From positions 62,001 through 126,000 of the forward strand of contig NZ_JALJAZ010000003.1 in the NCBI RefSeq assembly GCF_022899245.1: 64,000 bases of DNA, in the 5' to 3' direction. The translations under genes were made by a program, and so were the position numbers. Shown piece by piece: positions 15,047 through 55,064 of this stretch. The notes under the pieces were generated by a model. The model saw only the letters and a program-made list of their open reading frames with translations, was not told where the DNA came from and searched no databases. Each line of letters begins with the position of its first letter. The first letter of the stretch is position 1. This DNA comes from Falsirhodobacter halotolerans. GTDB taxonomy: Bacteria > Pseudomonadota > Alphaproteobacteria > Rhodobacterales > Rhodobacteraceae.

Positions 15047-15072
15047 AACACGCGTACAGCGCCTTCGGTTCC
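15047..15072 (-). promoter_or_regulatory. GGAAC-type ECF promoter candidate of csbD
   Basis: On the minus strand GGGAAC is followed after 17 bp by TGTT, close to the alphaproteobacterial EcfG form GGAAC-N16/17-CGTT. It would start transcription about 30 bp upstream of the csbD start. CsbD proteins are typical general stress targets, which supports the reading, but one -10 base differs. Confidence 0.42.
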
Positions 15073-15092
15073 CTCGGGGCGCGGCATGTGTG

Positions 15093-15866
15093 TCAGAGGG
15101 GCACGATATCCACATCCACGCCGGTGGCCCGCAGATCGCCCAGGGCCTGCGGGGAAATCCGGTCGTCCGTGACGATCCGGTCGATCTCGGTCACATGCGC
15201 GAACCGGCAGAAGGCGCGAGTGAAGATCTTGCTGCTGTCCACCAGAAGGATCACGGTGTCCGCGGCGGCGACGATGCCGCGCTTGATCTCGGCCAATTCG
15301 ATCGAGGTGTCGGAGAGGCCGTCGATCGCAACGGCGTGGGCCCCGAGGAACGCGATGTCGGCATGAAGGCGTCCGAGGTCGCGAAGGCAGGCCGCCCCGA
15401 TCAGCGTGTCCGATCCGTGCCGCACCCGACCGGCGGGCATGTGGCATTCGATCTGCGTGGCGGGGGCCAAGGTGGCGGCGATCATCAGATCGTTGGTGGT
15501 CGCGGTGAACGGCACCCCGCGTTTCATCGCGGCGCGGGCGCAGGCGGCGGTGGTGCTGCCGCTGTCGAACAGGACGGTCTGGCCCGGCTCGATCAGGGCG
15601 GCGGCGTGCTGGCCGATGCGGTCCTTCGCGCCCCGTTCGATCTGGGAGGAGATGGCAGGCTCCGTCTCGCGCGCGCGTTCGCCGCTGGAATTGATCATCG
15701 CGCCGCCATGCGTGCGGGTCAGATGGCCCGTCAGGCACAGATATTCGACATCCCGCCGCGTGGTCGAAAGCGAGGCCCCCACCTGCGCCGCCAGATCGGG
15801 AAGCGCCACGATGCGGTCCCGACGCAGGATTTCGATGATCCGGGCGCGGCGTTGTGCGGGAAGCAT
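15093..15866 (-). CDS. DeoR/GlpR-family transcriptional regulator
   Basis: This 257-residue repressor-type protein has an N-terminal DeoR helix-turn-helix (LPAQRRARIIEILRRD through STTRRDVEYL) and a DeoRC sensor domain with FDSGSTTAACARA, the sugar-phosphate-binding loop. It is divergent from kdgT and pdxA2 and probably controls them in response to a phosphorylated sugar-acid intermediate. The ATG at 15866 has GAAGGA upstream; an 18-codon upstream extension lacks family similarity. Three direct repeats in the divergent gap are candidate operators. Confidence 0.92.
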   Translation of the reverse strand: MLPAQRRARIIEILRRDRIVALPDLAAQVGASLSTTRRDVEYLCLTGHLTRTHGGAMINSSGERARETEPAISSQIERGAKDRIGQHAAALIEPGQTVLFDSGSTTAACARAAMKRGVPFTATTNDLMIAATLAPATQIECHMPAGRVRHGSDTLIGAACLRDLGRLHADIAFLGAHAVAIDGLSDTSIELAEIKRGIVAAADTVILLVDSSKIFTRAFCRFAHVTEIDRIVTDDRISPQALGDLRATGVDVDIVPL

Positions 15867-15910
15867 GACCCATCCTTCGAAAAACGCAACCCTAGGCGGG
15901 CGCGCGGGGG

Positions 15911-15967
15911 CGGTCAACATCGGTCAAAAGATGCCAGCAGCGTTCATCGGGTTGCATGATCGGTCAA
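15911..15967. promoter_or_regulatory. Three CGGTCAA direct repeats in the deoR-kdgT gap
   Basis: CGGTCAA occurs at 15911-15917, 15921-15927 and 15961-15967; the last two extend to ATCGGTCAA. Start-to-start distances are 10 and 40 bp, so all three face the same side of the helix. This is what repeated half-sites for a DeoR-type oligomer would look like. Seen directly; the regulator is inferred from position. Confidence 0.5.
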
Positions 15968-16037
15968 TCTGGGCCAAGGATGTGCCATCGGCCTCAGCCG
16001 GGTGTTCCCGCCCTGCGGCCCCAATGGCGGAGGATTC

Positions 16038-17024
16038 ATGCAGATCAAGGCGACACTCGAACGCATTCCCGGCGGCATGATGGTCGTGCCGCTTCTTCTT
16101 GGGGCCACGATCAACACGCTGGCGCCCGATCTGCTGCGGATCGGCAATTTCACCGAAGCCCTGTTCGTCAACAGCGCAAGCACGCTGATCGCCCTGTTCC
16201 TGCTGTGCGCGGGCGCGCAGATCAACCTGTCGAATGTCGGCACCGCGGCGGCCAAGGGGGCGACGCTTCTGGTCGTGAAATGGCTTGTCGGCGCGGCGGT
16301 GGGTCTTCTGGCCTTCCTGCTGGCGGGGGAGAACGGGCTGTTCTTCGGCATGGTCCCGCTGGCGATCATCGCGGCCATGACCAATTCGAACGGGGGGCTG
16401 TATGTCGCCATCGTGGGGCAATATGGCCGCGCGGACGACAAGGCGGCCTATTCCCTGCTGGCGCTGAACGACGGGCCGTTCCTGACGATGGTCGCGCTGG
16501 CGATCTTCGGCGCGATGGGCTTCGTCGACGGGTTCTTTTCCATCGTGACCTTCGTGTCGGTGCTGCTGCCCATTCTGGTGGGGATGGTCCTTGGCAATCT
16601 GGACGGCAACATGCGTGCGTTCCTGGCCAAGGGAAGCGACATGCTTATCCCCTTCTTCGCCTTTGCCCTTGGGATGAACATCAGCTTTTCGGCCATTCTG
16701 GCGGGCGGGTTGTCGGGCGTCCTGATCGGGGTGCTGACGGTGTTCGTGACCGGCACGGCGGGATACCTTGTCTTCCGCATGTTGGGCTGGAACCCCATCG
16801 TCGGGGCGGCCGAAGGCTCCACCGCGGGCAACGCCGTCGCGACCCCGGTGGCGATCGCCGCCGCCAACCCCGCCTTTGCGGCGCTGTCGCAACTGGCGAC
16901 GGTGCAGGTGGCTGCGTCCGTGGTGACGACGGCCATCCTCATGCCGCTCTACATCTCGTTTCTGGTGACGCGCACGGACCTAACCGGCCTGCGCGATCCC
17001 GATCCCATCCACGACGACCGCTGA
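16038..17024 (+). CDS. kdgT: 2-keto-3-deoxygluconate permease, KdgT family
   Basis: This 328-residue, roughly ten-helix protein begins MQIKATLERIPGGMM, almost the start of E. coli KdgT, and keeps TNSNGGLYVAI, LGNLDGNMR and IPFFAFALGMNI. KdgT imports 2-keto-3-deoxygluconate with protons. A GGAGGA ribosome site precedes the ATG at 16038; the upstream ATG at 16002 adds 12 unlike residues. PdxA2 follows 12 bp downstream, so the carried acid here may be a different four- to six-carbon aldonate. Confidence 0.92.
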   Translation: MQIKATLERIPGGMMVVPLLLGATINTLAPDLLRIGNFTEALFVNSASTLIALFLLCAGAQINLSNVGTAAAKGATLLVVKWLVGAAVGLLAFLLAGENGLFFGMVPLAIIAAMTNSNGGLYVAIVGQYGRADDKAAYSLLALNDGPFLTMVALAIFGAMGFVDGFFSIVTFVSVLLPILVGMVLGNLDGNMRAFLAKGSDMLIPFFAFALGMNISFSAILAGGLSGVLIGVLTVFVTGTAGYLVFRMLGWNPIVGAAEGSTAGNAVATPVAIAAANPAFAALSQLATVQVAASVVTTAILMPLYISFLVTRTDLTGLRDPDPIHDDR

Positions 17025-17036
17025 AAGGATCCTGAC

Positions 17037-18071
17037 ATGACCGAGGCCGAGATGAAGCCGATCATCGCCATCACCATGGGGGACGTGTGCGGCGTGGGCC
17101 CCGAGATCGTCGCGCGCACGATCGCGGATCCCGCCACCCATGCCATGGCCCGCCCCATCGTCGTGGGCGACGCGGCCATGCTGGCCCGCGCGGCCGAGAT
17201 CGTCGGCGCGACCTTCAAGATCGTGAAGGTCGCCCCCGGCGCCCCCCTTCCGGCGGACCCTTCGACCGATGTGGCGATCTGCGTCGATCCGGGGCTGGAT
17301 GTCGGCGACCTGCCTTTCGGCAAGGTCGATCCGCGCGCGGGCCATGCCGCCTATGAATTTCTGCGCATCGCAGTGGAAATGGCGCAGGCCCATACCGTTG
17401 CCGCCATCGCCACCGCCCCCCTGAACAAGGAGGCGCTTCACGCGGGCGGGCACCTGTTCCCTGGCCATACCGAGATTCTGGCCGAACTGACGGGCACCGA
17501 CAGCTACTCCATGATGCTGGCGACGCCCAAGATGAAGGTCATCCACCTGACGACCCATGTCGGGTTGATCGAGGCCATCCGCCGCATCACACCCGATCGG
17601 ACGTATCAGGTGGTGAAGCTGGCGCATGACACGCTGTCGGCGGCCGGGCAGGCGAACCCGCGCATCGCCGTGTGCGGCATCAACCCCCATGCGGGCGAAA
17701 ACGGCTTGTTCGGTGAGGGGGAGGAGGAAGAAAAGCTGATCCCCGGCATCGAACGCGCCCAAGCCGACGGCATCGACGTTCAAGGGCCGCTGCCCGCCGA
17801 CACGCTGTTCTATCGCGCAAGCCGGGGGGATTTCGACGTGGTCGTGGCCTGTTACCACGATCAGGGGCATGGGCCGGTCAAGGTTCAGTCGATCGACGAA
17901 GGGGTCAACATCACCGTGGGCCTGAACGACAACATCATCCGCACCTCGGTCGATCACGGGACGGCATTCGACATCGCGGGCAAGGGCATCGCGCGGTATG
18001 AAAGCCTGGTCGCCGCCATCCGCTATGCGATCCAGCTGGCGCCGGAAGGGCGGGGACGCCAGGCCCTCTGA
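17037..18071 (+). CDS. pdxA2: PdxA2-type 4-phospho-erythronate/threonate dehydrogenase
   Basis: This 344-residue protein is a PdxA-family NAD-dependent, metal-dependent decarboxylating dehydrogenase. Metal-ligand histidines appear in HLTTHVGLIEA and in YHDQGHGPVKV, and ITMGDVCGVGPEI is the N-terminal signature. Its place in a kdgT/DeoR sugar-acid cluster points to PdxA2, which oxidises D-threonate or D-erythronate 4-phosphate, rather than to vitamin B6 synthesis. The kinase (DUF1537) that usually accompanies PdxA2 is not in this window. Confidence 0.87.
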   Translation: MTEAEMKPIIAITMGDVCGVGPEIVARTIADPATHAMARPIVVGDAAMLARAAEIVGATFKIVKVAPGAPLPADPSTDVAICVDPGLDVGDLPFGKVDPRAGHAAYEFLRIAVEMAQAHTVAAIATAPLNKEALHAGGHLFPGHTEILAELTGTDSYSMMLATPKMKVIHLTTHVGLIEAIRRITPDRTYQVVKLAHDTLSAAGQANPRIAVCGINPHAGENGLFGEGEEEEKLIPGIERAQADGIDVQGPLPADTLFYRASRGDFDVVVACYHDQGHGPVKVQSIDEGVNITVGLNDNIIRTSVDHGTAFDIAGKGIARYESLVAAIRYAIQLAPEGRGRQAL

Positions 18072-18087
18072 CCTGCGGCATCGGGGC

Positions 18088-18114
18088 CGTCCGCGCCACA
18101 AATCGGTGCGGACG
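18088..18114 (+). terminator. Hairpin after pdxA2
   Basis: CGTCCGCGCC pairs with GGTGCGGACG (one G-U) across a 7-nt loop, 17 bp after the pdxA2 stop. No clear U-tract follows, so termination, if any, would be weak or Rho-assisted. Confidence 0.4.
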
Positions 18115-18196
18115 AACCTGCGGTTTCTTCGAAATTTCTGGCCGTGCCTGCGGATCGCCATATCATCTGGTCACACCCGCGTTACAGGACACGCCC

Positions 18197-34037: not shown

Positions 34038-34523
34038 ATGCAATGGCGCACGTGGATGGACAGCCCCGTCGGGCGGCTGCAACTGATTGCCACGGATGAC
34101 GGGGTGTCCGCCGTGCTGTGGGAGGGGGAGGACGGGTCCCGCATCGGCCAGGGGCCGGTGCAGGACCGCGACGACCATCCCGTGCTGGAAGAAACCGCGC
34201 GTCAACTGAACGAATATTTTGCGGGCACCCGACAAAGTTTCGATCTGCCGATGGACGCCCGCGGGACGCCCTTCCAGCATGAGGTCTGGGCGGCGCTGCG
34301 CGCGATCCCCTATGGCGAGACGCGCAGCTATGGCGACATCGCGCGATCCCTGGGGCGGCCGAAGGCGTTCCGGGCGGTCGGGGCGGCAAACGGCCGCAAT
34401 CCCCTTTCCATCGTGTCGCCCTGTCACCGCGTGATTGCGACGGGTGGTGGACTTGGGGGCTTTGCCGGCGGGCTGGCGGTCAAGTCCCGCCTTCTGGACA
34501 TGGAACGGTCAGACCGGCCCTGA
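34038..34523 (+). CDS. ogt: Methylated-DNA-[protein]-cysteine S-methyltransferase
   Basis: This 161-residue suicide enzyme removes O6-methyl groups from guanine. The acceptor Cys is in the motif SPCHRVIATGGGLGGFAGG; upstream GTPFQHEVWAALRAIPYGETRSYGDIA and FRAVGAANGRNP complete the DNA-binding domain. The ATG at 34038 has GGAGG 6 nt upstream. It converges with an AlkA-type glycosylase (stops overlapping), forming an alkylation-repair pair. No Ada regulatory domain is present. Confidence 0.93.
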   Translation: MQWRTWMDSPVGRLQLIATDDGVSAVLWEGEDGSRIGQGPVQDRDDHPVLEETARQLNEYFAGTRQSFDLPMDARGTPFQHEVWAALRAIPYGETRSYGDIARSLGRPKAFRAVGAANGRNPLSIVSPCHRVIATGGGLGGFAGGLAVKSRLLDMERSDRP

Positions 34524-35126
34524 AAGGTAGATGTGCCAGGCCATGAGGGCCACGACCCCGCGCCAGGGACGCCACTCTTCGGCCATCATGCGCAGGGCCG
34601 GTTCGGGCGGGCGCGGGTCGGGCAGGGACAGGATGCGGGCCGTGCCGATCCGCACCGCCAGATCGCCTGCGGGCCAGATGTCGGCGCGATCCTCGGCCAT
34701 CAGAAGATAGATTTCCGCCGTCCACCGTCCGATCCCCTTGACGGCGGTCAGGGTGGCAACGGCCGCATCGTCGTCCCGTGGCAGCGCCGTCAGGTCCAAG
34801 GTGCCCGAGGCCACATGATCGGCCAGGCTTCGGGCATGGCCGATCTTCTGCCGCGAAAAGCCCGCCGCGCGAAACACCTCGTCCGGGGCGGCGGCGACAT
34901 CGGAGGGGTCGTTCACGTCCAACACCGCTTCCAGCCGCGCGAAACAGGCGGCGGCAGAGGCCACGCTGACCTGCTGGCCCAGGATGATCCGCAACAGCGC
35001 GCCCATGCCAGGGGCGATTCCATGGGGCGGGGGAAGGCCGCGCGCCTCCACCTCGCGGGCGAAGGCGGGATGGCGGCCGGCCAAGGCGGCGCATCCTAGG
35101 GCAATCTGATCGGGCGACAAGCTCAT
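34509..35126 (-). CDS. alkA: DNA-3-methyladenine glycosylase II, AlkA type
   Basis: This 205-residue protein is a helix-hairpin-helix glycosylase: IILGQQVSVASA near residue 48, the HhH LTAVKGIGRWTAEIYLLMA and the catalytic Asp in WPAGDLAVRIG. It excises alkylated purines. It lacks the N-terminal beta domain of E. coli AlkA, as is usual in alphaproteobacteria. The frame is open to an ATG at 35216, but starting there would cross a GGAAC-type promoter, so 35126 is preferred. It overlaps the 3' end of ogt. Confidence 0.88.
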   Translation of the reverse strand: MSLSPDQIALGCAALAGRHPAFAREVEARGLPPPHGIAPGMGALLRIILGQQVSVASAAACFARLEAVLDVNDPSDVAAAPDEVFRAAGFSRQKIGHARSLADHVASGTLDLTALPRDDDAAVATLTAVKGIGRWTAEIYLLMAEDRADIWPAGDLAVRIGTARILSLPDPRPPEPALRMMAEEWRPWRGVVALMAWHIYLSGPV

Positions 35127-35146: not shown

Positions 35147-35172
35147 GGAACAGGGCGGGCAAGTTGAACGTT
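35147..35172 (+). promoter_or_regulatory. EcfG-type promoter of gpsA-ggpP-ggpS
   Basis: GGGGAAC, 17 bp, then CGTT is an exact match to the alphaproteobacterial general stress sigma (EcfG) consensus GGAAC-N16/17-CGTT. Transcription would start near 35180, about 170 bp before gpsA. The flanks also form GGGGAAC/GTTCCCC. A separate TATACT at 35333-35338 may be a housekeeping -10, but no -35 accompanies it. Confidence 0.6.
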
Positions 35173-35347
35173 CCCCAGCGAATGGGCGCATCGGCAAAGC
35201 GGGGGAAGGCGGACATGAACCGGATCGCGACACCCGTTGTGCCCCCCCATTCCGCCCCCCACCCTCTGTCGGTTTTTTCGCACGCGCAGGACGAATTGAA
35301 CCGCAGGTGTGGATTTTCAGCATCACCTGCGCTATACTCCGGACCTC

Positions 35348-36502
35348 ATGCAAAGCTCCGATACCCGCCTCCCGCCTTCGCCCGGACCTGCGTCCGATAC
35401 CGCCTCGCACAAACCTTATGACCGCATTGCCGTGATCGGCGGTGGGGCGTGGGGCACGGGATTGGCCACCGTCGCCGCCCGTGCCGGACGCGATGTCCGC
35501 CTGTGGATGCGCGACCCCGCGCAGGCCGAAGAGATGGCCACCCGCCACACCAACAGCCGGTATCTGGGCGATCTGGCCCTGCCGCGGTCCATCCGCCCCA
35601 TGACCGACATGGCGCAGGCGCTGGACGGGGCCGAGGCGGTTCTGCTGGTCACGCCCTCCACCACCATCCGCGACATGGCCGGGCGGATCGGCGCCTTGGC
35701 CGCGCCGGGCGTTCCGATCTTCGTCTGCGCCAAGGGGATCGAGGCGGATACCGGCCTTCTGATGTCCGCCGTGGTGGAGGAAGCCGCCGAGGGCCGCGTG
35801 ATCGGCACCGTGACCGGCCCGACCTTCGCCGCGGAAACGGCGGCGGGGCATCCGACCGCCGTCACCGTGGCCTGCACCAGCGCGGACGACACGCCCCCCC
35901 GCGCGCGCGCCGCATCGCGCATGGCGCTGGCGCTGACCACCGGCAGCTTCCGCCCCTATGTCTCCGACGACATGGCCGGGGTCGAGGTGGGGGGCGCGGT
36001 CAAGAACGTGATCGCCATCGCCTGCGGCATCCTTGCCGGTGCGGGCTTTGGCGACAATTCCCGCGCCGCCATCATCACGCGCGGTCTGGATGAGATGAAG
36101 GAGCTGGCCGTGCGCCTTGGCGGACGGCGTGAGACGGTGACGGGGCTGGGGGGTCTGGGCGATCTGATCCTGACCTGCTCCTCCCGCCAGTCGCGCAACT
36201 TCTCCTATGGGTTCCAACGGGGGCAAGGCATCCCCGACGCACAGGTGTTCGAGGGCCGCCCCGTCGTGGTGGAGGGGCGCCACAACGCCATCACCGTCAC
36301 CGACCTTGCCCGCAAGCTGGGGCTGGAGATGCCCATCTGCGAGATGGTCCGCGCCATCACCGCCGAAAGTCAGCCCATCGCCATCGCCTTCGCGAACTTC
36401 TGGGCCGCGCCGCTTCGAGGGGAACCCCGCGCGCTGGATCTGGAATTCGATCACCCGGCCGTGGAGGCCGTCACCCGCCATTTCGAGGACAAGTTTCAAT
36501 GA
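35348..36502 (+). CDS. gpsA: NAD(P)H-dependent glycerol-3-phosphate dehydrogenase
   Basis: This 384-residue enzyme reduces dihydroxyacetone phosphate to glycerol 3-phosphate. The Rossmann motif IAVIGGGAWGTGLA follows a 28-residue Pro/Ser-rich extension not usual in GpsA. The catalytic Lys is in VGGAVKNVIAIACG, and NSRAAIITRGLDEM and GLGGLGDLILTCSS are family marks. The stop overlaps ggpP by 4 nt. In this operon it probably supplies glycerol 3-phosphate for glucosylglycerol synthesis rather than, or as well as, for phospholipids. Confidence 0.93.
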   Translation: MQSSDTRLPPSPGPASDTASHKPYDRIAVIGGGAWGTGLATVAARAGRDVRLWMRDPAQAEEMATRHTNSRYLGDLALPRSIRPMTDMAQALDGAEAVLLVTPSTTIRDMAGRIGALAAPGVPIFVCAKGIEADTGLLMSAVVEEAAEGRVIGTVTGPTFAAETAAGHPTAVTVACTSADDTPPRARAASRMALALTTGSFRPYVSDDMAGVEVGGAVKNVIAIACGILAGAGFGDNSRAAIITRGLDEMKELAVRLGGRRETVTGLGGLGDLILTCSSRQSRNFSYGFQRGQGIPDAQVFEGRPVVVEGRHNAITVTDLARKLGLEMPICEMVRAITAESQPIAIAFANFWAAPLRGEPRALDLEFDHPAVEAVTRHFEDKFQ

Positions 36503-37266
36503 CCAGACCCATTCCCGCCGATTGGCGTTTCACGCTGGCCACCGATCTGGACGGCACCTTTCTTGGCGGCACCGACGCCATGCGCAAGACGCTGTATGAC
36601 TGGATCGAAGCGCGTCGGAGCGAGGTGGGCCTGATCTTCGTCACCGGACGCGATCCCGACTTCATCGCCCGGATGTGCGCGGACGGCGTCATGCCGTGGC
36701 CCGATTTCATCGTGGGGGATGTGGGCACCACCATCGCCGGGGTGGACGGACGGACCATCGCGCCGATCGCCGAGCTGGAGCGCCACATCACCGACACCTG
36801 GGGCGACCGGGGCGATCATGTGCGCGGCGTCCTGAAGGACGCGCCCGGCCTGGTGGAGCAGGATACGGCGTTCCGCCACCGCGTCAGCTATCACTGGGAT
36901 CCCGCGACCTATGACCCGGCCAGCGTGACCCCGCTGGAGGAGGCGTTCGACATCCTGATCTCGCACGGCTGCTATCTGGATGTGCTGCCCAAGGGGGTGT
37001 CGAAGGGGCCGTCGCTGCTGCGCCTCCTGGATCAGTTGGGGATCGACCCCGAAACGGTTCTGGTGGCGGGCGATACGCTGAACGATCTGTCGATGTTCCA
37101 GACGGGCCTGCACGGCGCGGTGGTGGGCGAAAGCGAACAGGGTCTTCTGGACGCCACGCGCGATCTGCCGCGGGCGCGCCACTGCGACGCCCCCGGCACG
37201 GGCGGCATTCTTGAGGCGATCCGGGCGTTCGGCCTGCATCCCGATGTGGCCGAGGTGCCGGCATGA
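36499..37266 (+). CDS. ggpP: Glucosylglycerol-3-phosphate phosphatase-like HAD hydrolase
   Basis: This 255-residue HAD phosphatase has motif I TDLDGTFLGG, motif II VTGRD, the Lys in PKGVSKGPSL and motif IV AGDTLNDLSMF, in the sucrose/trehalose-phosphatase style with a cap inserted after motif II. It is overlapped at both ends by gpsA and a GgpS-type synthase, so removal of phosphate from glucosylglycerol phosphate is the likely reaction. It differs in length from the cyanobacterial phosphatase, so the assignment leans on context; a mannosyl- or trehalose-phosphate substrate is the main alternative. Confidence 0.78.
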   Translation: MTRPIPADWRFTLATDLDGTFLGGTDAMRKTLYDWIEARRSEVGLIFVTGRDPDFIARMCADGVMPWPDFIVGDVGTTIAGVDGRTIAPIAELERHITDTWGDRGDHVRGVLKDAPGLVEQDTAFRHRVSYHWDPATYDPASVTPLEEAFDILISHGCYLDVLPKGVSKGPSLLRLLDQLGIDPETVLVAGDTLNDLSMFQTGLHGAVVGESEQGLLDATRDLPRARHCDAPGTGGILEAIRAFGLHPDVAEVPA

Positions 37267-38780
37267 GTTCGGATCTCGTCGTCGTCTATCACCGCCAGCC
37301 CTATGAAGAACACGTTCTGCCCGACGGCTCCACGGAACTGCGCGAAAATGCGTCGCCCAACGGAATCGTGCCCACGCTGAAGGGTATCATGGGCCGGATG
37401 GGCAACGCCGCCTGGGTTGCATGGAAACACGCCGACGATCCCGCCAACCCGGACTTCGAACGGGTGATCGAGATTGACGACAGTTTCGGCAAATACAAGG
37501 TCAGCCGCCTGCCGCTGACGCCGGCGCAGGTGTCCAGCTTCTATCACGTCACGTCGAAAGAGGCGTTCTGGCCGATCCTTCACGGGTTCAAGGAGAAATA
37601 CAATTACGACCCCGTCGATTGGCCGACCTTCCGCGAGGTCAACTGGGCATTCGCCGAGGCGGCCGCGCGCGAGGTGTCCGACAACGGCGTGGTCTGGATC
37701 CACGATTACAACCTGTGGCTGGTGCCCGGCTATCTGCGTCAGATCAAGCCCGACGTGAAGATCGCGTTCTTCCACCACACACCTTTCCCTTCCGCCGACA
37801 TGTTCAGCGTCCTGCCCTGGCGGGAGGAGATCGTCCGGTCGCTTCTGGCCTGCGACCAGGTGGGGTTCCACATTCCGCGCTACGCCCAGAACTTCGCCTC
37901 GGTCGCGCATTCGCTGACCAAGGCGCGAACCATCACGGACGAGTTGACATCGGACACAATGACCCCGCGCGGCGCGGCGCTGTCGGAACGGTTCACCCCC
38001 GTGACGATGGAACATCGCGGGCGGCGCATCCAGATCGAGGTGAACCCCGTCGGCGTCAACACCGACTTCATCGCCGAGATCGCGAGCACCCCCGAGGTGG
38101 ACGAAAAGGTCGAGCAGATCCGCGATTGGCTGGGGGATGCGCAACTGGTCGTGTCGGTCAGCCGCACCGATTACACCAAGGGCAACATCGAACAGCTTGA
38201 GACGTTCGAGCGTTTGCTGGCCCGTCGCCCCGAATTGCATGGCAAGGTGCGGTTGATGCTGGTGTCGGTCGGGGCGAACCGCGCCATGACCGCCTATGAG
38301 GAGGTGCAGCAGCGCATCGAGGAGCTGACGGGCCGGATCAACGGCACCTATGGCAGCTTCGAATGGCAGCCGGTTTCGCTGATTTCGACCGCGATCCCGC
38401 TGGCGGAACTCGTCGCTTACTACCGGGCGGCGGATGTGGCCTCAATCACGCCGCTGGCGGACGGGCTGAATCTGGTCGCCGCGGAATACTGCCTGTCAAA
38501 GCAGCCGGGCGATGTTCCGGGCACGTTGATCCTGTCGGAATTCGCAGGGTGCGCTGTGCTGCTGAACGGCGAGATTCCGGTCAATCCCTTCTCCTACGCG
38601 TCGATGGACCGGGCGCTGGATCAGGCGCTGGCGATGAGCGAGGAGGAAAAAGTCCCCCGGATGACCGAATTGCGCACCTCGGCCAAACGGTGGAGCATTT
38701 CGGCTTGGAGCGACCGGACCACGCGTCAGTTCGAGCTTTTGCGGCGGGCCGATACCGGTCTGGACGGCGCGATCACCTGA
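37263..38780 (+). CDS. ggpS: Glucosylglycerol-phosphate synthase, GT20 family
   Basis: This 505-residue glycosyltransferase is similar to trehalose-6-phosphate synthases but follows cyanobacterial GgpS in its diagnostic parts: VVYHRQPYEE, SPNGIVPTLKG, FYHVTSKEAFWPILH, WIHDYNLWLVPGYLRQ and FFHHTPFPSADMFSVLPWRE. It joins ADP-glucose to glycerol 3-phosphate. With gpsA and the phosphatase it forms a complete route from dihydroxyacetone phosphate to the osmolyte glucosylglycerol. The ATG overlaps ggpP by 4 nt. An automatic annotation might call it trehalose-6-phosphate synthase. Confidence 0.87.
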   Translation: MSSDLVVVYHRQPYEEHVLPDGSTELRENASPNGIVPTLKGIMGRMGNAAWVAWKHADDPANPDFERVIEIDDSFGKYKVSRLPLTPAQVSSFYHVTSKEAFWPILHGFKEKYNYDPVDWPTFREVNWAFAEAAAREVSDNGVVWIHDYNLWLVPGYLRQIKPDVKIAFFHHTPFPSADMFSVLPWREEIVRSLLACDQVGFHIPRYAQNFASVAHSLTKARTITDELTSDTMTPRGAALSERFTPVTMEHRGRRIQIEVNPVGVNTDFIAEIASTPEVDEKVEQIRDWLGDAQLVVSVSRTDYTKGNIEQLETFERLLARRPELHGKVRLMLVSVGANRAMTAYEEVQQRIEELTGRINGTYGSFEWQPVSLISTAIPLAELVAYYRAADVASITPLADGLNLVAAEYCLSKQPGDVPGTLILSEFAGCAVLLNGEIPVNPFSYASMDRALDQALAMSEEEKVPRMTELRTSAKRWSISAWSDRTTRQFELLRRADTGLDGAIT

Positions 38781-40421: not shown

Positions 40422-41525
40422 GTGAACGAACGCGACGACTGGCATCTGACGGATCTGCTGCGATACGAACGCGGGCGCGGCGACCCGTTCGCCGCCGCCG
40501 TTCGGGCCACGCGGATGCCGATGTTGGTCACCGATCCACATCAATCCGACAATCCCATCGTGTTCGTGAACGAGGCGTTCCAGACGCTGACGGGATATTC
40601 GCGCGATGAATGCGTGGGGCGGAACTGCCGGTTCCTGCAGGGGGAGCGGACGGACCCCCACGCCGTTGGCGTCCTGCGCGAGGCGGTGCGCAACGGCAAG
40701 GATGCAACCGTGGACATCCTGAATTACCGCAAGGATGGCACCTCGTTCTGGAACGCGCTTTATATCAGCCCCGTGCGCAACGACGATGGTGAGGTGGCGT
40801 TCTTCTTCGCCTCGCAGTTGGACATTTCCGATCGGGTGGCGGAACGTCAGGATATCGAACGCCAGCGCAACGTGATCGCCGACGAGGTGGAGATGCGCAC
40901 CTCGGAACTCAAGGACGCGCTGGCCGCGAAGACCCGTCTGCTGGACGAGCTTGACCACCGGGTGAAGAACAATCTGGCGATGATCGGCAGTTTTCTGCGG
41001 CTTCAGGCCCGCGCGGTGAACGATCCCAAGGTGCGCCGCATGGCCGAGGCGACAATGATGCGGGTCGATACCCTGTCCGCCGTCCACCGGCACATCTATC
41101 TTGATGGCCAGCTTCTGCCGCTGGACGTCGCGGATTTCGCGCAGACCCTGCTGACCGATTTCACCCGCCAGAAGGGGCAGGGGCGTGTGCGGATCCGAAC
41201 CGAGATCGAGCCGTCGCCCGTGCGCGCGCCCGTTGCCTCGACCATCGGCATCGTGATGGGGGAGATTGTGGACGGCATGATCTCGCACACCGCTGCGACG
41301 GGGGGGGATGTTGCCTTGCACGTCAAAAGCACGATCGGAGCGTCGGTCATCACGCTGAGCACGACGGCCGCGGATTTCACGCTGTCCTCGGTCGATCCCG
41401 ACGGGCTTCGCGGAACGCTTATCGCGCGGCTGTCGCGCTCGTTGGATCTGACGATCGTGGAAACGCGCGACGATCACCGCGCCACCGTCATCATCACCAT
41501 TCCCGCCCGAAGGATGACGAATTGA
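40422..41525 (+). CDS. LOV-domain sensor histidine kinase, HWE/HisKA_2 type, with degenerate catalytic domain
   Basis: This 367-residue protein has a LOV domain (about 25-137) with the flavin-adduct Cys69 in GRNCRFLQG and the conserved Gln in FFASQLDIS, then a linker coiled coil and a HisKA_2 helix with H179 in LDELDHRVKNNL. The C-terminal ATP-binding domain is altered: the N-box reads GEIVDGMISHT where functional members have NELVTNALKHA, and no DxGxG G-box is present. It may therefore bind light but not phosphorylate itself. The GTG at 40422 follows AGGGA at proper spacing. A receiver protein is coupled downstream. Confidence 0.88.
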   Translation: MNERDDWHLTDLLRYERGRGDPFAAAVRATRMPMLVTDPHQSDNPIVFVNEAFQTLTGYSRDECVGRNCRFLQGERTDPHAVGVLREAVRNGKDATVDILNYRKDGTSFWNALYISPVRNDDGEVAFFFASQLDISDRVAERQDIERQRNVIADEVEMRTSELKDALAAKTRLLDELDHRVKNNLAMIGSFLRLQARAVNDPKVRRMAEATMMRVDTLSAVHRHIYLDGQLLPLDVADFAQTLLTDFTRQKGQGRVRIRTEIEPSPVRAPVASTIGIVMGEIVDGMISHTAATGGDVALHVKSTIGASVITLSTTAADFTLSSVDPDGLRGTLIARLSRSLDLTIVETRDDHRATVIITIPARRMTN

Positions 41526-41974
41526 ACCGCCCTCTGCCATCCCTGAATGTCCTCCTGATCGAGGATGAGCCGCTGATCGCCATGGACATGCAGATGATGC
41601 TGGAAGATGCGGGTCACACGGTCGTGGCCGAGGCGACCACGATGTCCGAACTGGAAGACATTCTGCCGGGTATCGCCCCCGATGTGGCCTTCGTGGACAT
41701 CCAGCTGGGCGACGGGTCGTCGGGTGTGGATGCCTGTCGCCTGATTCGCAACGCATGGCACGACACCGTCGTCATCTTCGTGACCGCCAACCCCGCCATG
41801 ATCCCGCAGGATTATGCCGGAGGGCATGGCGTGATCGCCAAGCCCTTCACGCAAGACGGCTTCATGTCGGCGATGCAGTATCTTGGCGAAGGCATCAGCG
41901 ATCCCCCGCCCACGGTGGCGAAGCCGAACGCGTTTTGCGCATCCCCGGCCTTTGCCGCGCGGTGGGGGGCCTAA
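41522..41974 (+). CDS. Single-domain response regulator
   Basis: This 150-residue receiver has the acidic pair in LLIEDEPLI, the phospho-accepting Asp in VAFVDIQLGDG, the Thr in FVTANP and the Lys in AKPF. No output domain follows; the C-terminal 30 residues look disordered. The start is a TTG overlapping the kinase stop (TTGA), so the two are made together. Receivers of this kind in alphaproteobacteria act as phosphate sinks or relay to other kinases. The partner may be the LOV protein or another kinase, given the poor ATP site upstream. Confidence 0.87.
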   Translation: MNRPLPSLNVLLIEDEPLIAMDMQMMLEDAGHTVVAEATTMSELEDILPGIAPDVAFVDIQLGDGSSGVDACRLIRNAWHDTVVIFVTANPAMIPQDYAGGHGVIAKPFTQDGFMSAMQYLGEGISDPPPTVAKPNAFCASPAFAARWGA

Positions 41975-42915: not shown

Positions 42916-42941
42916 GGAACAGCCCCGACCCCACATGCGTT
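42916..42941 (+). promoter_or_regulatory. EcfG-type promoter of the phospholipase D-family gene
   Basis: GGGAAC, 17 bp, then CGTT matches GGAAC-N17-CGTT exactly. It lies just after the stop of the MBL gene, with a predicted start about 18 bp before the ATG at 42967, giving a short normal leader that contains the GGAGG ribosome site. Confidence 0.6.
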
Positions 42942-42966: not shown

Positions 42967-44568
42967 ATGAAACGGTGGGTATGGGCGGCACTTCTGGCAG
43001 GGACGGCCTGCTGCGCCCTCAGCCGGTCCACACGCCTGCCACCGCACGAGCCGGAGGGGACGCGCCCAGCCAGACCCCATCCGAAGGAGACCCGGCTTGG
43101 CCGTGCCGCGCGGCGGCGGGTCGGTCTGCATCTGGGGAAATCTGGCATCCATCTTCTGACCGACGCGCAGGATTCCTTTGCCGCGCGGGTTCTTCTTGCC
43201 CGTCAGGCCGAACGGACGCTCGATCTGCAATATTACATCTGGCACGGCGACCTGACCGGCACGATCCTGCTGGACGAGGTGTTGCGCGCCGCCGAACGGG
43301 GCGTGAAGGTGCGCCTGCTGCTGGATGACAACGGCATTTCGGGGATGGACCGGATCCTGGCCTCGATGGATCGGCACCCGAACATTCAAGTCCGCATCTT
43401 CAACCCCTTCCTGCCGCGATTCCCGAAATCGTTGGGGTTTCTTCTGGATTTCCATCGTCTGAACCGGCGGATGCACAACAAGGCCTTCATCGCCGACAAC
43501 GCCGCCACCATCGTCGGCGGGCGCAATGTGGGGGATGAATATTTCGGGGCGGGCGATGGCGGGTTGTTCGCCGATTTGGATGTGTTGGCCATCGGGCCGG
43601 TGGTGCAGGATGTGACCACCAGTTTCGAGGATTATTGGCACTGCCGCTCCGCCTATCCCGCAGCGCGCATTCTGGGCCGCGGGTCGGCGCGCCTGTTGCG
43701 CCGGCTGCACCGCCGCGCCGCCCGGCTGGAGCGGGATCCCAAGGCGGAAGACTTCATGCGCAGCGTCGCGGCCCTGCCCATCATCACGCGATTCCTGAGC
43801 GGCGATCTGCCCTTGTCCTGGGCCAAGGTGCGGATGATGGCGGACGACCCGGAAAAGGCCTTGGGCAAGGCCAGTCGGAATGGGCTTCTGGCGGGACGCA
43901 TGTTCGACGCGATGGGACGCCCACGTCATGAACTGGGCATCGTTGCCGGGTATTTCGTTCCGGGCCGCAATGGGGTGGCGGCCCTCGCACGTCTGGCCCG
44001 CGCGGGGGTGTCGGTGTCGGTTCTGACCAACGCCTATGAGGCGACGGATACCGGCATCGTCCATGCAGGCTATGCCCCGTCGCGCCTGCCGCTTTTGCGC
44101 GCCGGGGTCCGCATGTTCGAAATGCGCGGCAAGACCGCCGCGCCATCGCTGCAAGGCAGCGGCCCGCTGCGCACGCCGCGCGGGATCGGCAGCCGCTGGC
44201 GCGGTTCGGGGCAGGGATCGACGGCACGGCTGCGGGCCCACGCCTCTACCCTGCACGCGAAAACCTTCACCGTTGACCGCAAACGCATCTTCATCGGATC
44301 GTTCAACTTCGATCCCCGTTCGTGGGAATTGAACACGGAAATGGGGTTCGTGATCGAAAGCGCAGCGCTGGCCGCCCGCGTGGCCGACGCGTTCGAGGCG
44401 GGTGCGCCGCACAACGCCTATGAACTCCGCCTTCGGGGGCGCAAGATCGAATGGCTGAAGCGCGACGAGGGGCGCCTGACCCGCATCCGCAAGGAGCCGG
44501 GCCTGGGCCCCATGGGGCGGATCGCCCTGCGGGCCGCCACGGCCGCACGGATTCAGTGGTTGTTGTGA
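42967..44568 (+). CDS. Phospholipase D-family protein with two HKD motifs
   Basis: This 533-residue protein has a short hydrophobic N-terminus and two PLDc_2 domains with the catalytic HxKx4D motifs HNKAFIAD (about residue 170) and HAKTFTVD (about residue 425), each followed by GG-N or GS-N (GGRNVGDEYF, GSFNFDPRS). The long form with ARQAERTLDLQYYIWHGD resembles cardiolipin synthase-like or YmdC/ClsC proteins that transfer phosphatidyl groups. An EcfG-type promoter is just upstream, suggesting membrane remodelling under stress. Confidence 0.88.
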   Translation: MKRWVWAALLAGTACCALSRSTRLPPHEPEGTRPARPHPKETRLGRAARRRVGLHLGKSGIHLLTDAQDSFAARVLLARQAERTLDLQYYIWHGDLTGTILLDEVLRAAERGVKVRLLLDDNGISGMDRILASMDRHPNIQVRIFNPFLPRFPKSLGFLLDFHRLNRRMHNKAFIADNAATIVGGRNVGDEYFGAGDGGLFADLDVLAIGPVVQDVTTSFEDYWHCRSAYPAARILGRGSARLLRRLHRRAARLERDPKAEDFMRSVAALPIITRFLSGDLPLSWAKVRMMADDPEKALGKASRNGLLAGRMFDAMGRPRHELGIVAGYFVPGRNGVAALARLARAGVSVSVLTNAYEATDTGIVHAGYAPSRLPLLRAGVRMFEMRGKTAAPSLQGSGPLRTPRGIGSRWRGSGQGSTARLRAHASTLHAKTFTVDRKRIFIGSFNFDPRSWELNTEMGFVIESAALAARVADAFEAGAPHNAYELRLRGRKIEWLKRDEGRLTRIRKEPGLGPMGRIALRAATAARIQWLL

Positions 44569-47827: not shown

Positions 47828-47831
47828 ACAT

Positions 47832-47860: not shown

Positions 47861-47862
47861 TG

Positions 47863-48957
<1,095 letters not shown>

Positions 48958-49010
48958 GGTCTTCCTTTCGAATTACCAGGTCGAGGTAGATACGATCCGC
49001 CGCTGTTCAA

Positions 49011-49574: not shown

Positions 49575-49625
49575 TCGGTCCTTTCAGCGTGAGGGGTGGG
49601 GCGGGGGCGAACCCCCGGGCCCCGA

Positions 49626-51371: not shown

Positions 51372-51374
51372 GTC

Positions 51375-51401
51375 TTTCTCCTCTTGAGATCGGAGGAGAA
51401 A
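51375..51401 (-). promoter_or_regulatory. Hairpin sequestering the ribosome-binding site of the OmpA-family gene
   Basis: TTTCTCCTC and GAGGAGAAA form a perfect 9-bp stem with a 9-nt loop. On the messenger the 3' arm contains the GAGGAG ribosome site, 6 nt before the ATG at 51371, so the site is fully paired when the hairpin forms. This could give temperature or ribosome-dependent control. Confidence 0.5.
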
Positions 51402-51425
51402 CCACTCACGTCCCCTTGGGGTTCC
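51400..51425 (-). promoter_or_regulatory. Weak GGAAC-type promoter candidate of the OmpA-family gene
   Basis: On the minus strand GGGGAAC is followed after 17 bp by GGTT, one base from the EcfG -10 CGTT. A start here, near 51393, would leave the 5' arm of the adjacent hairpin out of the transcript, so this promoter and the hairpin are alternative readings. Confidence 0.28.
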
Positions 51426-51434
51426 CCCGCGGGA

Positions 51435-52634: not shown

Positions 52635-52730
52635 GGACACGCTCCTCGGACACCACGGATATGTCCAATGGATGCCTGACGCGAACGTGAATGAAAAGCA
52701 TGAACTGCGGGATGTCTGCCCGACAGAAAG

Positions 52731-52759
52731 AAAACGGGGCGCCCGTGAAGGGCGCCCCG
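52731..52759 (-). terminator. Rho-independent terminator of the DUF4394 gene
   Basis: CGGGGCGCCC and GGGCGCCCCG form a perfect 10-bp stem with a 5-nt loop, followed on the minus strand by TTTTCTTTCT. It starts 8 bp after the stop. Confidence 0.88.
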
Positions 52760-52766
52760 ATCCGGA

Positions 52767-53552
52767 TCACATGGCCGGAAGAACGGCGATGTCGGTCAGC
52801 TCGCCGTCGATGCCTTCCAGCGTCCCGACCTCGGTCGCCATGCCCGTCTCCAGATCCACGGTGTAGATCGTGGAGGACGCGACGAGCCACGCGGTGTTGG
52901 TGCCATCCTCGGTCGTCTGGATGTCGAAGGCCGGGGTCGACCCGTCCATCTCGAAGCCCAGCTTGCCCACGGCGGCCAGCGTGCCATCGTTGGGCGAGGT
53001 CTGACGGATCAGCGCGCCGATGGTGGTGTCGATGTCATACATCGCCGTCGCTTCGGGCTTGCCGTAGGAGTTGGTGTAGGCCGCCGCCGCGATCATCGGC
53101 TCTTCGCCGGCGTGCATGTCGTTGTCCTCGAACGCCAGCGAACCGTCCACGGTCACTTCGCCCGTGTCCACGTTAACGCGGTGGTTGGTCGTGCCGGTCA
53201 TCAGACGCAGGCGGTCGGCCATCGGGTTGAAGTCCACGATCACCGGGGTGTCGGCCATCGGCAGTTCGGTGTCCATGGTGGACAGGGCGGTGGCCGCGCC
53301 GCTCGTGGTGTCGATCGTCACGATCTCGTTGTCCGAGGTGACGCCGACCAGCGTGTTGTTGGACGGGCGCAGGTCGATCCCGACCAGCGTGCCGGTGCCC
53401 GACACTTCCATCATCGTCACGTCCGCCGGGGTGTCGGTGTCGAACATCACCAGCGTGTTGCCGTTCACCAGGCCGACCACGGGCGCGGCGAGGGCAGGTG
53501 CGGCGAAGGCGATGGCGGTGCCGGTCAACAGGGCGGTGTGAAGCGTTTTCAT
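52767..53552 (-). CDS. DUF4394 domain-containing secreted protein
   Basis: This 261-residue protein has a Sec signal (residues 1-22, ending ALA) and the DUF4394 pattern: VVGLVNGNTLVMFDTDTPAD, LVGIDLRPSNNTLVGV, VIVDFNPMADRLRLM and NHRVNVDTGEV. The repeats suggest a beta-propeller. The function is unknown. It is divergent from an ECF sigma/anti-sigma pair, an arrangement often seen for DUF4394 genes, so it is probably a target of that sigma factor. The ATG at 53552 has GAGGA upstream. Confidence 0.87.
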   Translation of the reverse strand: MKTLHTALLTGTAIAFAAPALAAPVVGLVNGNTLVMFDTDTPADVTMMEVSGTGTLVGIDLRPSNNTLVGVTSDNEIVTIDTTSGAATALSTMDTELPMADTPVIVDFNPMADRLRLMTGTTNHRVNVDTGEVTVDGSLAFEDNDMHAGEEPMIAAAAYTNSYGKPEATAMYDIDTTIGALIRQTSPNDGTLAAVGKLGFEMDGSTPAFDIQTTEDGTNTAWLVASSTIYTVDLETGMATEVGTLEGIDGELTDIAVLPAM

Positions 53553-53672
53553 CTCGTATCCTCTCGTGTGACGGACGGCCCTCATGCCGCCTCTGACGTG
53601 AAGAACACACGGGATGCGGATTTGGATGCATGAGCGGACGATTTTTTTGCCATTTCGTCAAAGTGTCGCAGG

Positions 53673-53697
53673 GGAACGGCTTTTCATCCCGCACGTC
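53673..53697 (+). promoter_or_regulatory. ECF-type promoter of the sigma/anti-sigma operon
   Basis: GGGGAAC, 16 bp, then CGTC is a standard ECF promoter form. It lies 55 bp upstream of the sigma start on the same strand, which fits autoregulation by the encoded sigma factor. Confidence 0.62.
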
Positions 53698-53752
53698 GCA
53701 CGTCATCCTTCACACGACGTCGGGGGCGCCCGGCGACAGGGAGGACCGCCGG

Positions 53753-54301
53753 ATGACCGAGCCCCATGGGTGCGACATGACCCTTGCCCTTGCCGCCTGC
53801 GCGCGGGGCGACCGATCGGCCCTGCGCCGGATCATGGACGCCGAGGGCAGCCGCCTTCTGGGCGTGGCCACCCGGATGCTGCGAAGGCGCGATCTGGCCG
53901 AAGAAGCGGTGCAGGATGCGATGGTCCAGATATGGCGCAAGGCGGGGCAGTTCCGTGCGGGGCAGGGGTCGGCGCGGGGATGGGTGTTCGCCATTCTGCG
54001 CAATCGGTGCCTGAACATCCTGCGCGACGGGGCGCGCCTGTCCCATGTGGACGGCGACACATTGCAGGACCTGCAGGACGGGCGGCAGATGGCCGCCGGT
54101 CAGGCCTGGGACACGCTCGGGCCGATGGCCTTGCGCGACTGTCTGGGCACGCTGGATGGATCGTCCCGCCACGCGATCCTGCTTGCATATGTCGGCGGTT
54201 ACAGCCATGGCGAGATCGCCGCCCTTCAGGCCGTGCCGCTTGGCACGTGCAAGTCGAAGATCCGGCGGGGGCTGGAAACATTGCGGGGGTGCCTGTCATG
54301 A
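53753..54301 (+). CDS. ECF RNA polymerase sigma factor, SigK-like
   Basis: This 182-residue protein has sigma region 2 (residues 20-85, with RMLRRRDLAEEAVQDAMVQIWRKA and GWVFAILRNRCLNILR) and region 4 (about 125-180, with HAILLAYVGGYSHGEIAALQAVPLGTCKSKIRRGLETLR). No region 3 is present, as in ECF factors. The ATG at 53753 follows GGAGG; upstream codons cover the promoter. It overlaps the anti-sigma gene by 4 nt, the usual coupling of the SigK/RskA group. Confidence 0.93.
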   Translation: MTEPHGCDMTLALAACARGDRSALRRIMDAEGSRLLGVATRMLRRRDLAEEAVQDAMVQIWRKAGQFRAGQGSARGWVFAILRNRCLNILRDGARLSHVDGDTLQDLQDGRQMAAGQAWDTLGPMALRDCLGTLDGSSRHAILLAYVGGYSHGEIAALQAVPLGTCKSKIRRGLETLRGCLS

Positions 54302-54978
54302 GCCGTGACATCGACGACCTTGCCGACACGTTCGTCCTTGGCCTGTGCGACGCGGACGACGCCGCACGGCTCGAGGCGAAACTGTCCCGCGATGCGCAAT
54401 GGGCGCAGGCGGTCGGACGCGCGCGCGACCGATTCCTGCCGCTGGATCAGACCGCGCCCGCCGTGACCCTGCCCGACGACCTTTGGGACCGCATCGCCCC
54501 GCAGATTGGCGCGGTGCCCCCGGCGGCCAACCGACCCTTCGCGCCCCGACTGCGCCGGTTCCTGCCCACCGCCGTCGCGGCGGCGGTGGCGCTGATGGTC
54601 GGCCTTTATCTTGGCGGGCGGACCCTGGGACCGGAGCCGGTGGTCGTGGCCGTCCTGATGGACGAGGCCGGAGCCGCCCGCGCCATTGTCGAGGATTACG
54701 GCCACGAGACCGCCCGCATCCGGTTTGTAAGCGACGTCGCCGTGCCCGAGGGGCGGCAGATGCAGGTGTGGACGCTGCCCTCGACAGACCGTGGTCCGGT
54801 CTCCCTGGGGTTGCTGAACACGGACCGGACCGAGACGCTGGCCCCCCCGACGCTGCCCGTGCCTGCGGATGGCCAGCTGTACGAGATCACGCTGGAACCT
54901 TTGGGCGGGTCCCCCACCGACCGTCCGACCGGCGCGATTCTGGCCAAGGGCTTTGCCGCGCGGCAGGATCGAATCTGA
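54298..54978 (+). CDS. Anti-sigma factor, RskA type
   Basis: This 226-residue membrane protein has a cytoplasmic sigma-binding part (DIDDLADTFVLGLCDADDAARLEAKLSRD), one helix at about residues 87-107, and a periplasmic RskA C-terminal domain (AGAARAIVEDYGHETARIRF through GQLYEITLEPLGGSPTDRPTGAILAKG). It holds the sigma factor inactive until a periplasmic signal triggers cleavage. No HxxxCxxC zinc motif is present, so it is not a ChrR-type zinc anti-sigma. Confidence 0.9.
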   Translation: MSRDIDDLADTFVLGLCDADDAARLEAKLSRDAQWAQAVGRARDRFLPLDQTAPAVTLPDDLWDRIAPQIGAVPPAANRPFAPRLRRFLPTAVAAAVALMVGLYLGGRTLGPEPVVVAVLMDEAGAARAIVEDYGHETARIRFVSDVAVPEGRQMQVWTLPSTDRGPVSLGLLNTDRTETLAPPTLPVPADGQLYEITLEPLGGSPTDRPTGAILAKGFAARQDRI

Positions 54979-55038
54979 CAGGGAGGAAGGACGGTCCCAG
55001 ATTGCCTGCGCGCGTGGAAAAGCCGTCCGGTGCGACGG

Positions 55039-55064
55039 GGAACCGAACGACGTTCATCCTTGTT
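55039..55064 (+). promoter_or_regulatory. GGAAC-type promoter candidate of the amino acid ABC operon
   Basis: GGGGAAC, 17 bp, then TGTT resembles the csbD candidate. It lies 75 bp before the start of the binding protein. One -10 base differs from the EcfG consensus. Confidence 0.38.

What the first reader, a model, noticed from the sequence alone, without database searches (positions are those of the whole stretch)
15047..55064. Dispersed GGAAC-N16/17-(C/T)GTY promoters suggest an ECF-controlled stress regulon
In intergenic gaps, correctly oriented, I find GGGGAAC-N17-CGTT before gpsA-ggpPS (35147), GGGAAC-N17-CGTT before the phospholipase D gene (42916), GGGAAC-N17-TGTT before csbD (minus, 15072), GGGGAAC-N17-TGTT before the amino acid importer (55039) and GGGGAAC-N16-CGTC before the ECF sigma gene (53673). 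A rough hand estimate from base composition is well under one chance hit of the N16/17-YGTT form in all gaps of this window, against four seen. Targets are osmolyte synthesis, membrane lipid and CsbD genes, as in EcfG general stress regulons.
Basis: partly seen in the sequence, partly recalled or inferred. Interest (0 to 1): 0.75.

Follow-up and report, generated by a model that had tools for sequence, protein, structure and literature searches.

The report
EcfG general-stress promoters in a Falsirhodobacter
Scattered short promoter signals in this bacterial DNA belong to a genome-wide set of switches for the well-known alphaproteobacterial stress response; four of the five reported signals are credible, and the set probably includes genes for making a salt-protective sugar compound.

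Summary
In detail: all five motifs are where stated. In the window GGAAC-N17-YGTT occurs six times, five in gaps facing a gene; 17 other spacers give 2 of 19 in gaps. Genome-wide, N16/17 sites lie in gaps more often than the reversed pattern (62 of 100 against 14 of 75) or the same CGTT boxes at wrong spacers (13 of 19 against 4 of 81). CGTT carries this; TGTT alone does not beat its own control. The genome, a Falsirhodobacter by nearest named relatives, has an HWE-type kinase-ecfG-nepR-phyR locus that is a hot spot of these sites, and a second EcfG-like sigma gene. EcfG control is supported. Same-genus orthologues with the site: phospholipase D 4 of 4; importer 3 of 5; csbD 2 of 5; gpsA-ggpPS 1 of 4, plus 17 of 68 wider relatives, mostly the Salipiger group; ECF gene 0 of 4, rejected. 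The window also encodes a LOV blue-light kinase and receiver. A known kind of system; the EcfG-glucosylglycerol link is the fresh part. Nothing here measures transcription.

The parts
42916..42941 (+). EcfG-type promoter GGAAC-N17-CGTT of the phospholipase D gene; strongest site of the window
   Evidence: site kept at -25 to -30 with a diverged spacer in 4 of 4 same-genus orthologues
42967..44568 (+). phospholipase D family gene
   Evidence: PLDc_2 and PLDc in Pfam; start
15047..15072 (-). EcfG-type promoter GGAAC-N17-TGTT of csbD, 38 nt before the start
   Evidence: CGTT versions at -37 and -35 before the best matches in G001 and G002, none before those in G004, G005, G006
14826..15008 (-). 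csbD-like gene
   Evidence: PF05532; start
35147..35172 (+). EcfG-type site GGAAC-N17-CGTT, 175 nt before gpsA-ggpPS
   Evidence: equivalent site in 1 of 4 same-genus orthologues and in 17 of 68 gpsA loci of relatives, 14 of them Salipiger, Alloyangia or Citreicella
35149..35174 (-). mirrored overlapping GGAAC-N17-TGTT site facing the DNA glycosylase gene
   Evidence: no N16/17 YGTT site before the glycosylase of 29 of 29 relatives' loci, the G002 orthologue among them
34509..35084 (-). HhH-GPD DNA glycosylase gene
   Evidence: PF00730
35348..36502 (+). gpsA paralogue of the glucosylglycerol operon; ATG taken at 35348
   Evidence: Pfam NAD_Gly3P_dh; start chosen by eye, position
36499..37266 (+). 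HAD-type phosphatase of the operon (glucosylglycerol-phosphate phosphatase, inferred)
   Evidence: S6PP/HAD in Pfam; same gene order annotated in Falsirhodobacter algicola
37263..38780 (+). ggpS, glucosylglycerol-phosphate synthase
   Evidence: Glyco_transf_20; closest named relatives 83-85% identical; F. algicola orthologue annotated ggpS
55039..55064 (+). probable EcfG-type site GGAAC-N17-TGTT, 75 nt before the amino-acid importer
   Evidence: exact site in 3 of 5 same-genus orthologues, but a longer ATCCTTGTT block and a separate TTGC..CAT element are also kept
55140..55901 (+). solute-binding protein of an amino-acid type ABC importer (permease gene follows at 55903)
   Evidence: SBP_bac_3; BPD_transp_1 for 55903-56577
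53673..53697 (+). GGAAC-N16-CGTC before the ECF gene: present, but judged chance
   Evidence: 0 of 4 same-genus orthologues; a different element is kept in this gap
53753..54301 (+). ECF sigma factor gene, not EcfG
   Evidence: Sigma70_r2/r4_2; 29% identical to EcfG1 and 26% to EcfG2, which are 48% identical to each other
54298..54978 (+). RskA-type anti-sigma factor gene
   Evidence: RskA_C
40422..41525 (+). LOV blue-light histidine kinase of the HWE/HisKA_2 type (candidate input to the same stress switch)
   Evidence: GRNCRFLQ motif; HisKA_2/HWE; best solved relatives are blue-light-activated histidine kinases
41522..41974 (+). single-domain response regulator paired with the LOV kinase
   Evidence: Response_reg; sequence

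Best explanation
The sites are promoters of the alphaproteobacterial general stress response. Under stress an HWE/HisKA_2 kinase phosphorylates PhyR, PhyR takes NepR away from the sigma factor EcfG, and RNA polymerase with EcfG starts at GGAAC-N16/17-CGTT (and at some TGTT sites). In this window that most likely switches on phospholipase D and csbD, probably also the gpsA-ggpPS glucosylglycerol operon (as an added, distal promoter) and the amino-acid importer, but not the ECF-RskA operon. Shown by sequence: motif, position, spacing, regulator genes, and conservation for most sites. Inferred: binding, direction of control, the stress signal, and which of two EcfG paralogues acts.
For: Gap placement 62 of 100 against 14 of 75 for the reversed pattern, and 54 against 7 for gap plus a gene start on the same strand within 300 nt (Fisher p 7e-9 and 3e-10); for CGTT alone 44 of 61 against 8 of 58. 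Same CGTT boxes at wrong spacers: 4 of 81 in gaps against 13 of 19 for N16/17 in the same sample. NepR, EcfG, PhyR and a HisKA_2/HWE kinase all match Pfam in one locus, with sites facing phyR and nepR-ecfG. Regulon heads include the expected kinds. Same-genus orthologues keep sites while spacers diverge: PLD 4 of 4, importer 3 of 5, csbD 2 of 5. gpsA upstream regions of 68 loci: 15 with N16, 2 with N17, 2 in all for 17 other spacers. The consensus used for Rubellimicrobium is GGAAC-N16-17-C/GGTT (PMC12148442, passages).
Against: The raw number of N16/17 CGTT hits is only modestly high (61 against about 49 expected from other spacers); the case rests on position and conservation. TGTT sites taken alone are not separable from TGTT-matched controls (gaps 18 of 39 against 6 of 17, p 0.56; facing a gene 16 of 39 against 4 of 17, p 0.24). 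gpsA-ggpPS lacks the site in 3 of 4 same-genus orthologues and 51 of 68 wider loci, and a sigma-70-like element sits before its start. csbD lacks an exact site in 3 of 5, the importer in 2 of 5. In Rhodobacter sphaeroides PhyR had no major general-stress role (PMC5830050, passages). No expression data.
Confidence: 0.86

Rival explanations
1. The motifs are chance matches in a GC-rich genome.
For: The looser YGTY form in the window is only 8 against 4.13 expected; raw genome counts are only modestly raised; TGTT sites alone do not beat their control.
Against: Gap placement, spacer specificity, distance to starts, and orthologue conservation.
Confidence: 0.03
2. The sites are read by another ECF factor, such as the ECF-RskA pair in the window, not by EcfG.
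For: An ECF gene lies in the window and GGAAC-type boxes are recognised by several ECF groups (recalled).
Against: The window ECF is 26-29% identical to the EcfG pair; in 4 of 4 same-genus orthologues its upstream region lacks the site and keeps another element. The ecfG-nepR-phyR locus is the hot spot of the motif.
Confidence: 0.05
3. The 35147/35149 site serves the divergent DNA glycosylase, or is idle, rather than gpsA-ggpPS.
For: It is 64 nt from the glycosylase start and 175 nt from gpsA; gpsA has a sigma-70-like element just before its ATG, seen by eye here and in 3 of 4 same-genus orthologues.
Against: In G002, which keeps the same gene pair, only the gpsA-facing site is kept; gpsA-facing sites recur in Salipiger-group genomes, and tblastn found no glycosylase in any of the 72 loci.
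Confidence: 0.3
4. The second EcfG-like sigma (contig C1, about 2.133 Mb) rather than the NepR-linked one drives the window genes.
For: It is 48% identical to EcfG1 and has its own GGAAC-N16-CGTT site 34 nt upstream; paralogous EcfG factors with shared targets and a hierarchy are described in Sphingopyxis (PMC7083833, passages).
Against: No sequence evidence separates the two; its own site suggests it sits downstream of EcfG1.
Confidence: 0.2

Closest known systems
PhyR-NepR-EcfG general stress response of Alphaproteobacteria
   Same: HWE/HisKA_2 kinase, ecfG, nepR and phyR in one locus; GGAAC-N16/17-CGTT promoters; regulon with stress genes
   Different: The predicted regulon here reaches a glucosylglycerol operon and a phospholipase D gene; two EcfG-like sigmas but one NepR match
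Rubellimicrobium thermophilum GSR with LOV kinase (PMC12148442, passages)
   Same: Same order by recalled taxonomy; same promoter consensus; a LOV HWE/HisKA2 kinase in the same genome
   Different: There two PhyR sets are described; here one NepR match and one PhyR locus were seen (other PhyR genes were not searched for), and the LOV kinase lies on another contig than the locus
EcfG1/EcfG2 pair of Sphingopyxis granuli TFA (PMC7083833, passages)
   Same: Two EcfG paralogues, motif GGAAC-N16-CGTT
   Different: There the two ecfG genes are divergent neighbours; here the second lies about 0.36 Mb from the nepR-phyR locus
Caulobacter LovK-LovR (recalled; listing)
   Same: LOV kinase gene followed by a single-domain receiver gene
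   Different: No GGAAC-N16/17-YGTT site before the pair here; it has a TTGACA-N16-TAGATT sequence

Membership tests
PhyR-NepR-EcfG general stress response | EcfG-type sigma factor gene beside nepR | tested here: met
   Sigma70_r2/r4_2 and PhyR_sigma2 hits, directly after nepR; formal ECF group (ECF15) not tested
PhyR-NepR-EcfG general stress response | NepR anti-sigma factor | tested here: met
   PF18557, one match in the genome, 58.9 bits against cut-off 25.7
PhyR-NepR-EcfG general stress response | PhyR with sigma-like and receiver domains | tested here: met
   PhyR_sigma2, PhyR_sigma-like and Response_reg in one protein
PhyR-NepR-EcfG general stress response | HWE/HisKA_2 sensor kinase in the locus | tested here: met
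   HisKA_2 2.6e-22, HWE_HK 9.2e-8
PhyR-NepR-EcfG general stress response | GGAAC-N16/17-CGTT enriched in promoters genome-wide, spacer-specific | tested here: met
PhyR-NepR-EcfG general stress response | TGTT form of the -10 box as a general target | tested here: inconclusive
   18 of 39 in gaps against 6 of 17 for matched controls, p 0.56; single TGTT sites conserved
PhyR-NepR-EcfG general stress response | Target transcription depends on EcfG under stress | not testable with these tools
   No expression data
Regulon of the window's own ECF-RskA pair | The same motif conserved before the ECF gene itself | tested here: not met
   0 of 4 same-genus orthologues; another element conserved
Glucosylglycerol synthesis operon | gpsA-type dehydrogenase, HAD phosphatase and GT20 synthase in one unit | tested here: met
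   enzyme activity not tested
LOV histidine kinase | LOV domain with the flavin-binding cysteine motif and HWE/HisKA_2 kinase core | tested here: met
   (meaning of the motif recalled); light response not testable

The most novel reading that the evidence does not exclude
In part of the Rhodobacterales (this Falsirhodobacter, one sister species and the Salipiger group) the general stress sigma EcfG directly switches on synthesis of the osmolyte glucosylglycerol, and in this genome a blue-light LOV kinase-receiver pair encoded beside that operon feeds the same PhyR switch, so light would tune osmoprotection.
Probability: 0.18. Interest if true: 0.55.

Novelty: new member of a known kind. Interest (0 to 1): 0.36.

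Why it matters
It gives a predicted general-stress regulon (54 gap sites facing a gene within 300 nt, some of them surely chance) for a genus for which no paper in the library also names EcfG, in an order where one study found only a narrow PhyR role (PMC5830050, passages). It adds a testable link between EcfG and glucosylglycerol synthesis; no paper in the library names both, nor both Salipiger and EcfG.

Tried and rejected
Rejected: the ECF-gene site as a regulon member. Rejected: the leading GGGG as part of the motif, judged on 28 CGTT sites outside the window. Weighed and not claimed: the mirrored 35147/35149 pair as a special bidirectional promoter; 5 of 62 gap sites are followed by CC and only two such pairs arise, and the glycosylase-facing half is not kept.

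Led nowhere: the CGWY search was cut to its first 100 rows and as a whole was not raised (477 against 466 reversed), so CGTC and CGAT variants could not be judged genome-wide. Four csbD-like loci of relatives (L342, L344, L346, L347) show GGAAC-N17-CGAT by eye; not followed. Sigma-70-like elements before gpsA, the importer and the LOV kinase were read by eye.

Limits: genes in gap tests come from a caller I wrote, not from an annotation; 3 of 78 reversed-control hits were dropped because they lay too near the end of a stretch. Reversed controls with T are few (17 of 75), so the TGTT test is weak. The wrong-spacer control used CGTT only and the first 100 listed places, all on the + strand of contig C1 up to 1.50 Mb, of 377 in all. 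Of the genes behind the 54 promoter-like sites, three very short ones were not given to Pfam. Related sequences are not independent: Salipiger-group genomes count many times.
Full report
What was checked. The window lies on contig C3 (positions 62001-126000) of a 3.08 Mb, three-contig genome. Its closest named relatives by the GgpS protein are Falsirhodobacter species at 83-85% identity, and a megablast of part of the window found a Falsirhodobacter algicola plasmid carrying the same three-gene operon. The five reported sites are present exactly as described.

More than chance in the window. The YGTT form with N16/17 occurs six times against a shuffle mean of 1.68, reached by 1 of 100 shuffles. 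Five of the six, at four separate places, lie in gaps that make up 6.8% of the window, and all five face a gene within 300 nt. All six are N17. Seventeen other spacers gave 19 hits together, 2 in gaps and 1 facing a gene.

More than chance in the genome. The whole genome holds 100 N16/17 YGTT sites. I took stretches of about 3-19 kb round them, called genes with a codon-usage script, and classified each. 62 of 100 lie in gaps and 54 of 100 also face a gene start within 300 nt; for the reversed pattern the numbers are 14 of 75 and 7 of 75 (Fisher p 7e-9 and 3e-10). Three of the 78 reversed hits were dropped for lying too near a stretch end. A stricter control keeps both boxes (CGTT) and changes only the spacer: among the first 100 listed places, 4 of 81 wrong-spacer sites lie in gaps against 13 of 19 N16/17 sites. 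The raw count is less striking, 61 CGTT sites against about 49 expected from other spacers, so the case rests on where the sites are. In 37 of the 54 promoter-like cases the -10 box ends 22-50 nt before the start codon.

CGTT against TGTT. Split by the first -10 base, CGTT sites are in gaps in 44 of 61 cases against 8 of 58 matched controls (p 9e-11), but TGTT sites in 18 of 39 against 6 of 17 (p 0.56). So the TGTT form, used by the csbD, importer and glycosylase-facing sites of the window, is not established by counting, and those sites must be judged by conservation.

The regulator. One NepR match exists in the genome, in a region with ten motif hits within 8.2 kb, eight of them in gaps. That region encodes an HWE/HisKA_2 kinase, a sigma factor, NepR and, divergently, PhyR, with sites facing phyR and the nepR-ecfG unit. 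PhyR was also found in the stretches held of the same-genus genomes G002, G003 and G006, and NepR beside it in G002. A second sigma factor 48% identical to EcfG, with a PhyR_sigma2 hit, has its own site 34 nt upstream. Genes behind other sites include a further sigma-70-family factor (RpoH-like by size, not tested), four PRC-barrel proteins, superoxide dismutase, DJ-1/PfpI, fasciclin, CsbD, transglycosylase-associated, pyridoxamine-oxidase-like and BrkB proteins, and three single-domain response regulators. Some are probably chance, such as the one overlapping the start of ribosomal protein L21.

Site by site. Phospholipase D: site at -25 to -30 in 4 of 4 same-genus orthologues, with diverged spacers. 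csbD: CGTT sites at -37 and -35 before the best matches in G001 and G002, none exact in G004, G005 and G006; over all nine relatives' loci examined, 3 of 9 have an exact site near the start. Importer: exact site in 3 of 5 same-genus orthologues; a longer ATCCTTGTT block and a downstream TTGC..CAT element are also kept, so another promoter or operator may share the place. gpsA-ggpPS: I take the start codon at 35348, so the site lies 175 nt upstream. One of 4 same-genus orthologues (G002) has it, in the same glycosylase-gpsA gap. Among 68 relatives' gpsA loci with enough upstream DNA, 15 have an N16 and 2 an N17 site within 300 nt and 51 have none, against 2 hits for 17 other spacers together; 14 of the 17 are Salipiger, Alloyangia or Citreicella, so they are not independent. 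The window and 3 of 4 same-genus orthologues show, by eye, a sigma-70-like element just before the start, so the EcfG site would be an added promoter. ECF gene: 0 of 4 same-genus orthologues have the site; the five aligned sequences share ACAC(A/G)CG..GGA(T/C)GCA, which on the other strand points toward the DUF4394 gene and is my guess for that ECF factor's own promoter.

A light sensor in the middle. Between the glucosylglycerol operon and phospholipase D lie a LOV histidine kinase with the GRNCRFLQ motif and HWE/HisKA_2 core, and a single-domain receiver. HWE/HisKA2 kinases feed PhyR in other Alphaproteobacteria (PMC12148442, passages); LOV kinases and single-domain receivers are tied to the response in titles and abstract openings of PMC5964349 and PMC4438053. 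The pair has a TTGACA-N16-TAGATT sequence upstream and no N16/17 YGTT site. The LOV kinase was not found beside gpsA, ggpS or PLD in the relatives' stretches held, which reach only 1.5-5 kb. That it feeds this stress response is inference.

Comparison with what is known. The published consensus is GGAAC-N16-17-C/GGTT as used for Rubellimicrobium (PMC12148442, passages), GGAAC-N16-CGTT in Sphingopyxis (PMC7083833, passages) and GGAAC-N17-20-GTT in Sphingomonas (PMC6599016, passages). The system here meets the defining features that sequence can test, apart from the open TGTT question. In Rhodobacter sphaeroides PhyR had no major role in general stress, only in membrane and UV stress (PMC5830050, passages), which cautions against assuming a broad role here. 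No paper in the library names both glucosylglycerol and EcfG, Falsirhodobacter and EcfG or Salipiger and EcfG; of 17 with glucosylglycerol and 'general stress response', ten were listed and eight of these are on cyanobacteria.

Verdict. A real, correctly read signal: four of five sites are credible members of an EcfG regulon (PLD firmly, the others less so), one is not. It is a new member of a known kind. The freshest testable point is EcfG control of glucosylglycerol synthesis in Rhodobacterales.

Noticed in passing
window 40422-41974: LOV blue-light histidine kinase and single-domain receiver between the ggpPS operon and phospholipase D, with a TTGACA-N16-TAGATT sequence upstream.
   Followed up: partly
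L069 13127-13158 (contig C1, 2489126-2489157): A palindromic GGAACCAAACG..CGTTTGGTTCC element gives two overlapping, opposed EcfG-type promoters, one for phyR and one for nepR-ecfG; a near-identical arrangement with a different centre is present in G002 (L243). The two could exclude each other.
   Followed up: partly
L101 1536-2036 (contig C1, about 2.133 Mb): Second EcfG-like sigma factor, 48% identical to EcfG1, with its own GGAAC-N16-CGTT site; only one NepR match in the genome.
   Followed up: partly
L342, L344, L346, L347: csbD-like genes of relatives carry GGAAC-N17-CGAT at the usual promoter place, a possible -10 variant (read by eye).
   Followed up: no
window 53586-53752: The gap between DUF4394 and the ECF gene keeps ACAC(A/G)CG..GGA(T/C)GCA in the five aligned same-genus sequences, perhaps the promoter of this ECF-RskA pair.
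   Followed up: partly
L189 1739-2762: In this Salipiger locus a nucleotidyltransferase gene divergent from gpsA also has a GGAAC-type site facing it; other Salipiger-group loci have a divergent gene of similar size, several with a site, whose family was not checked.
   Followed up: partly
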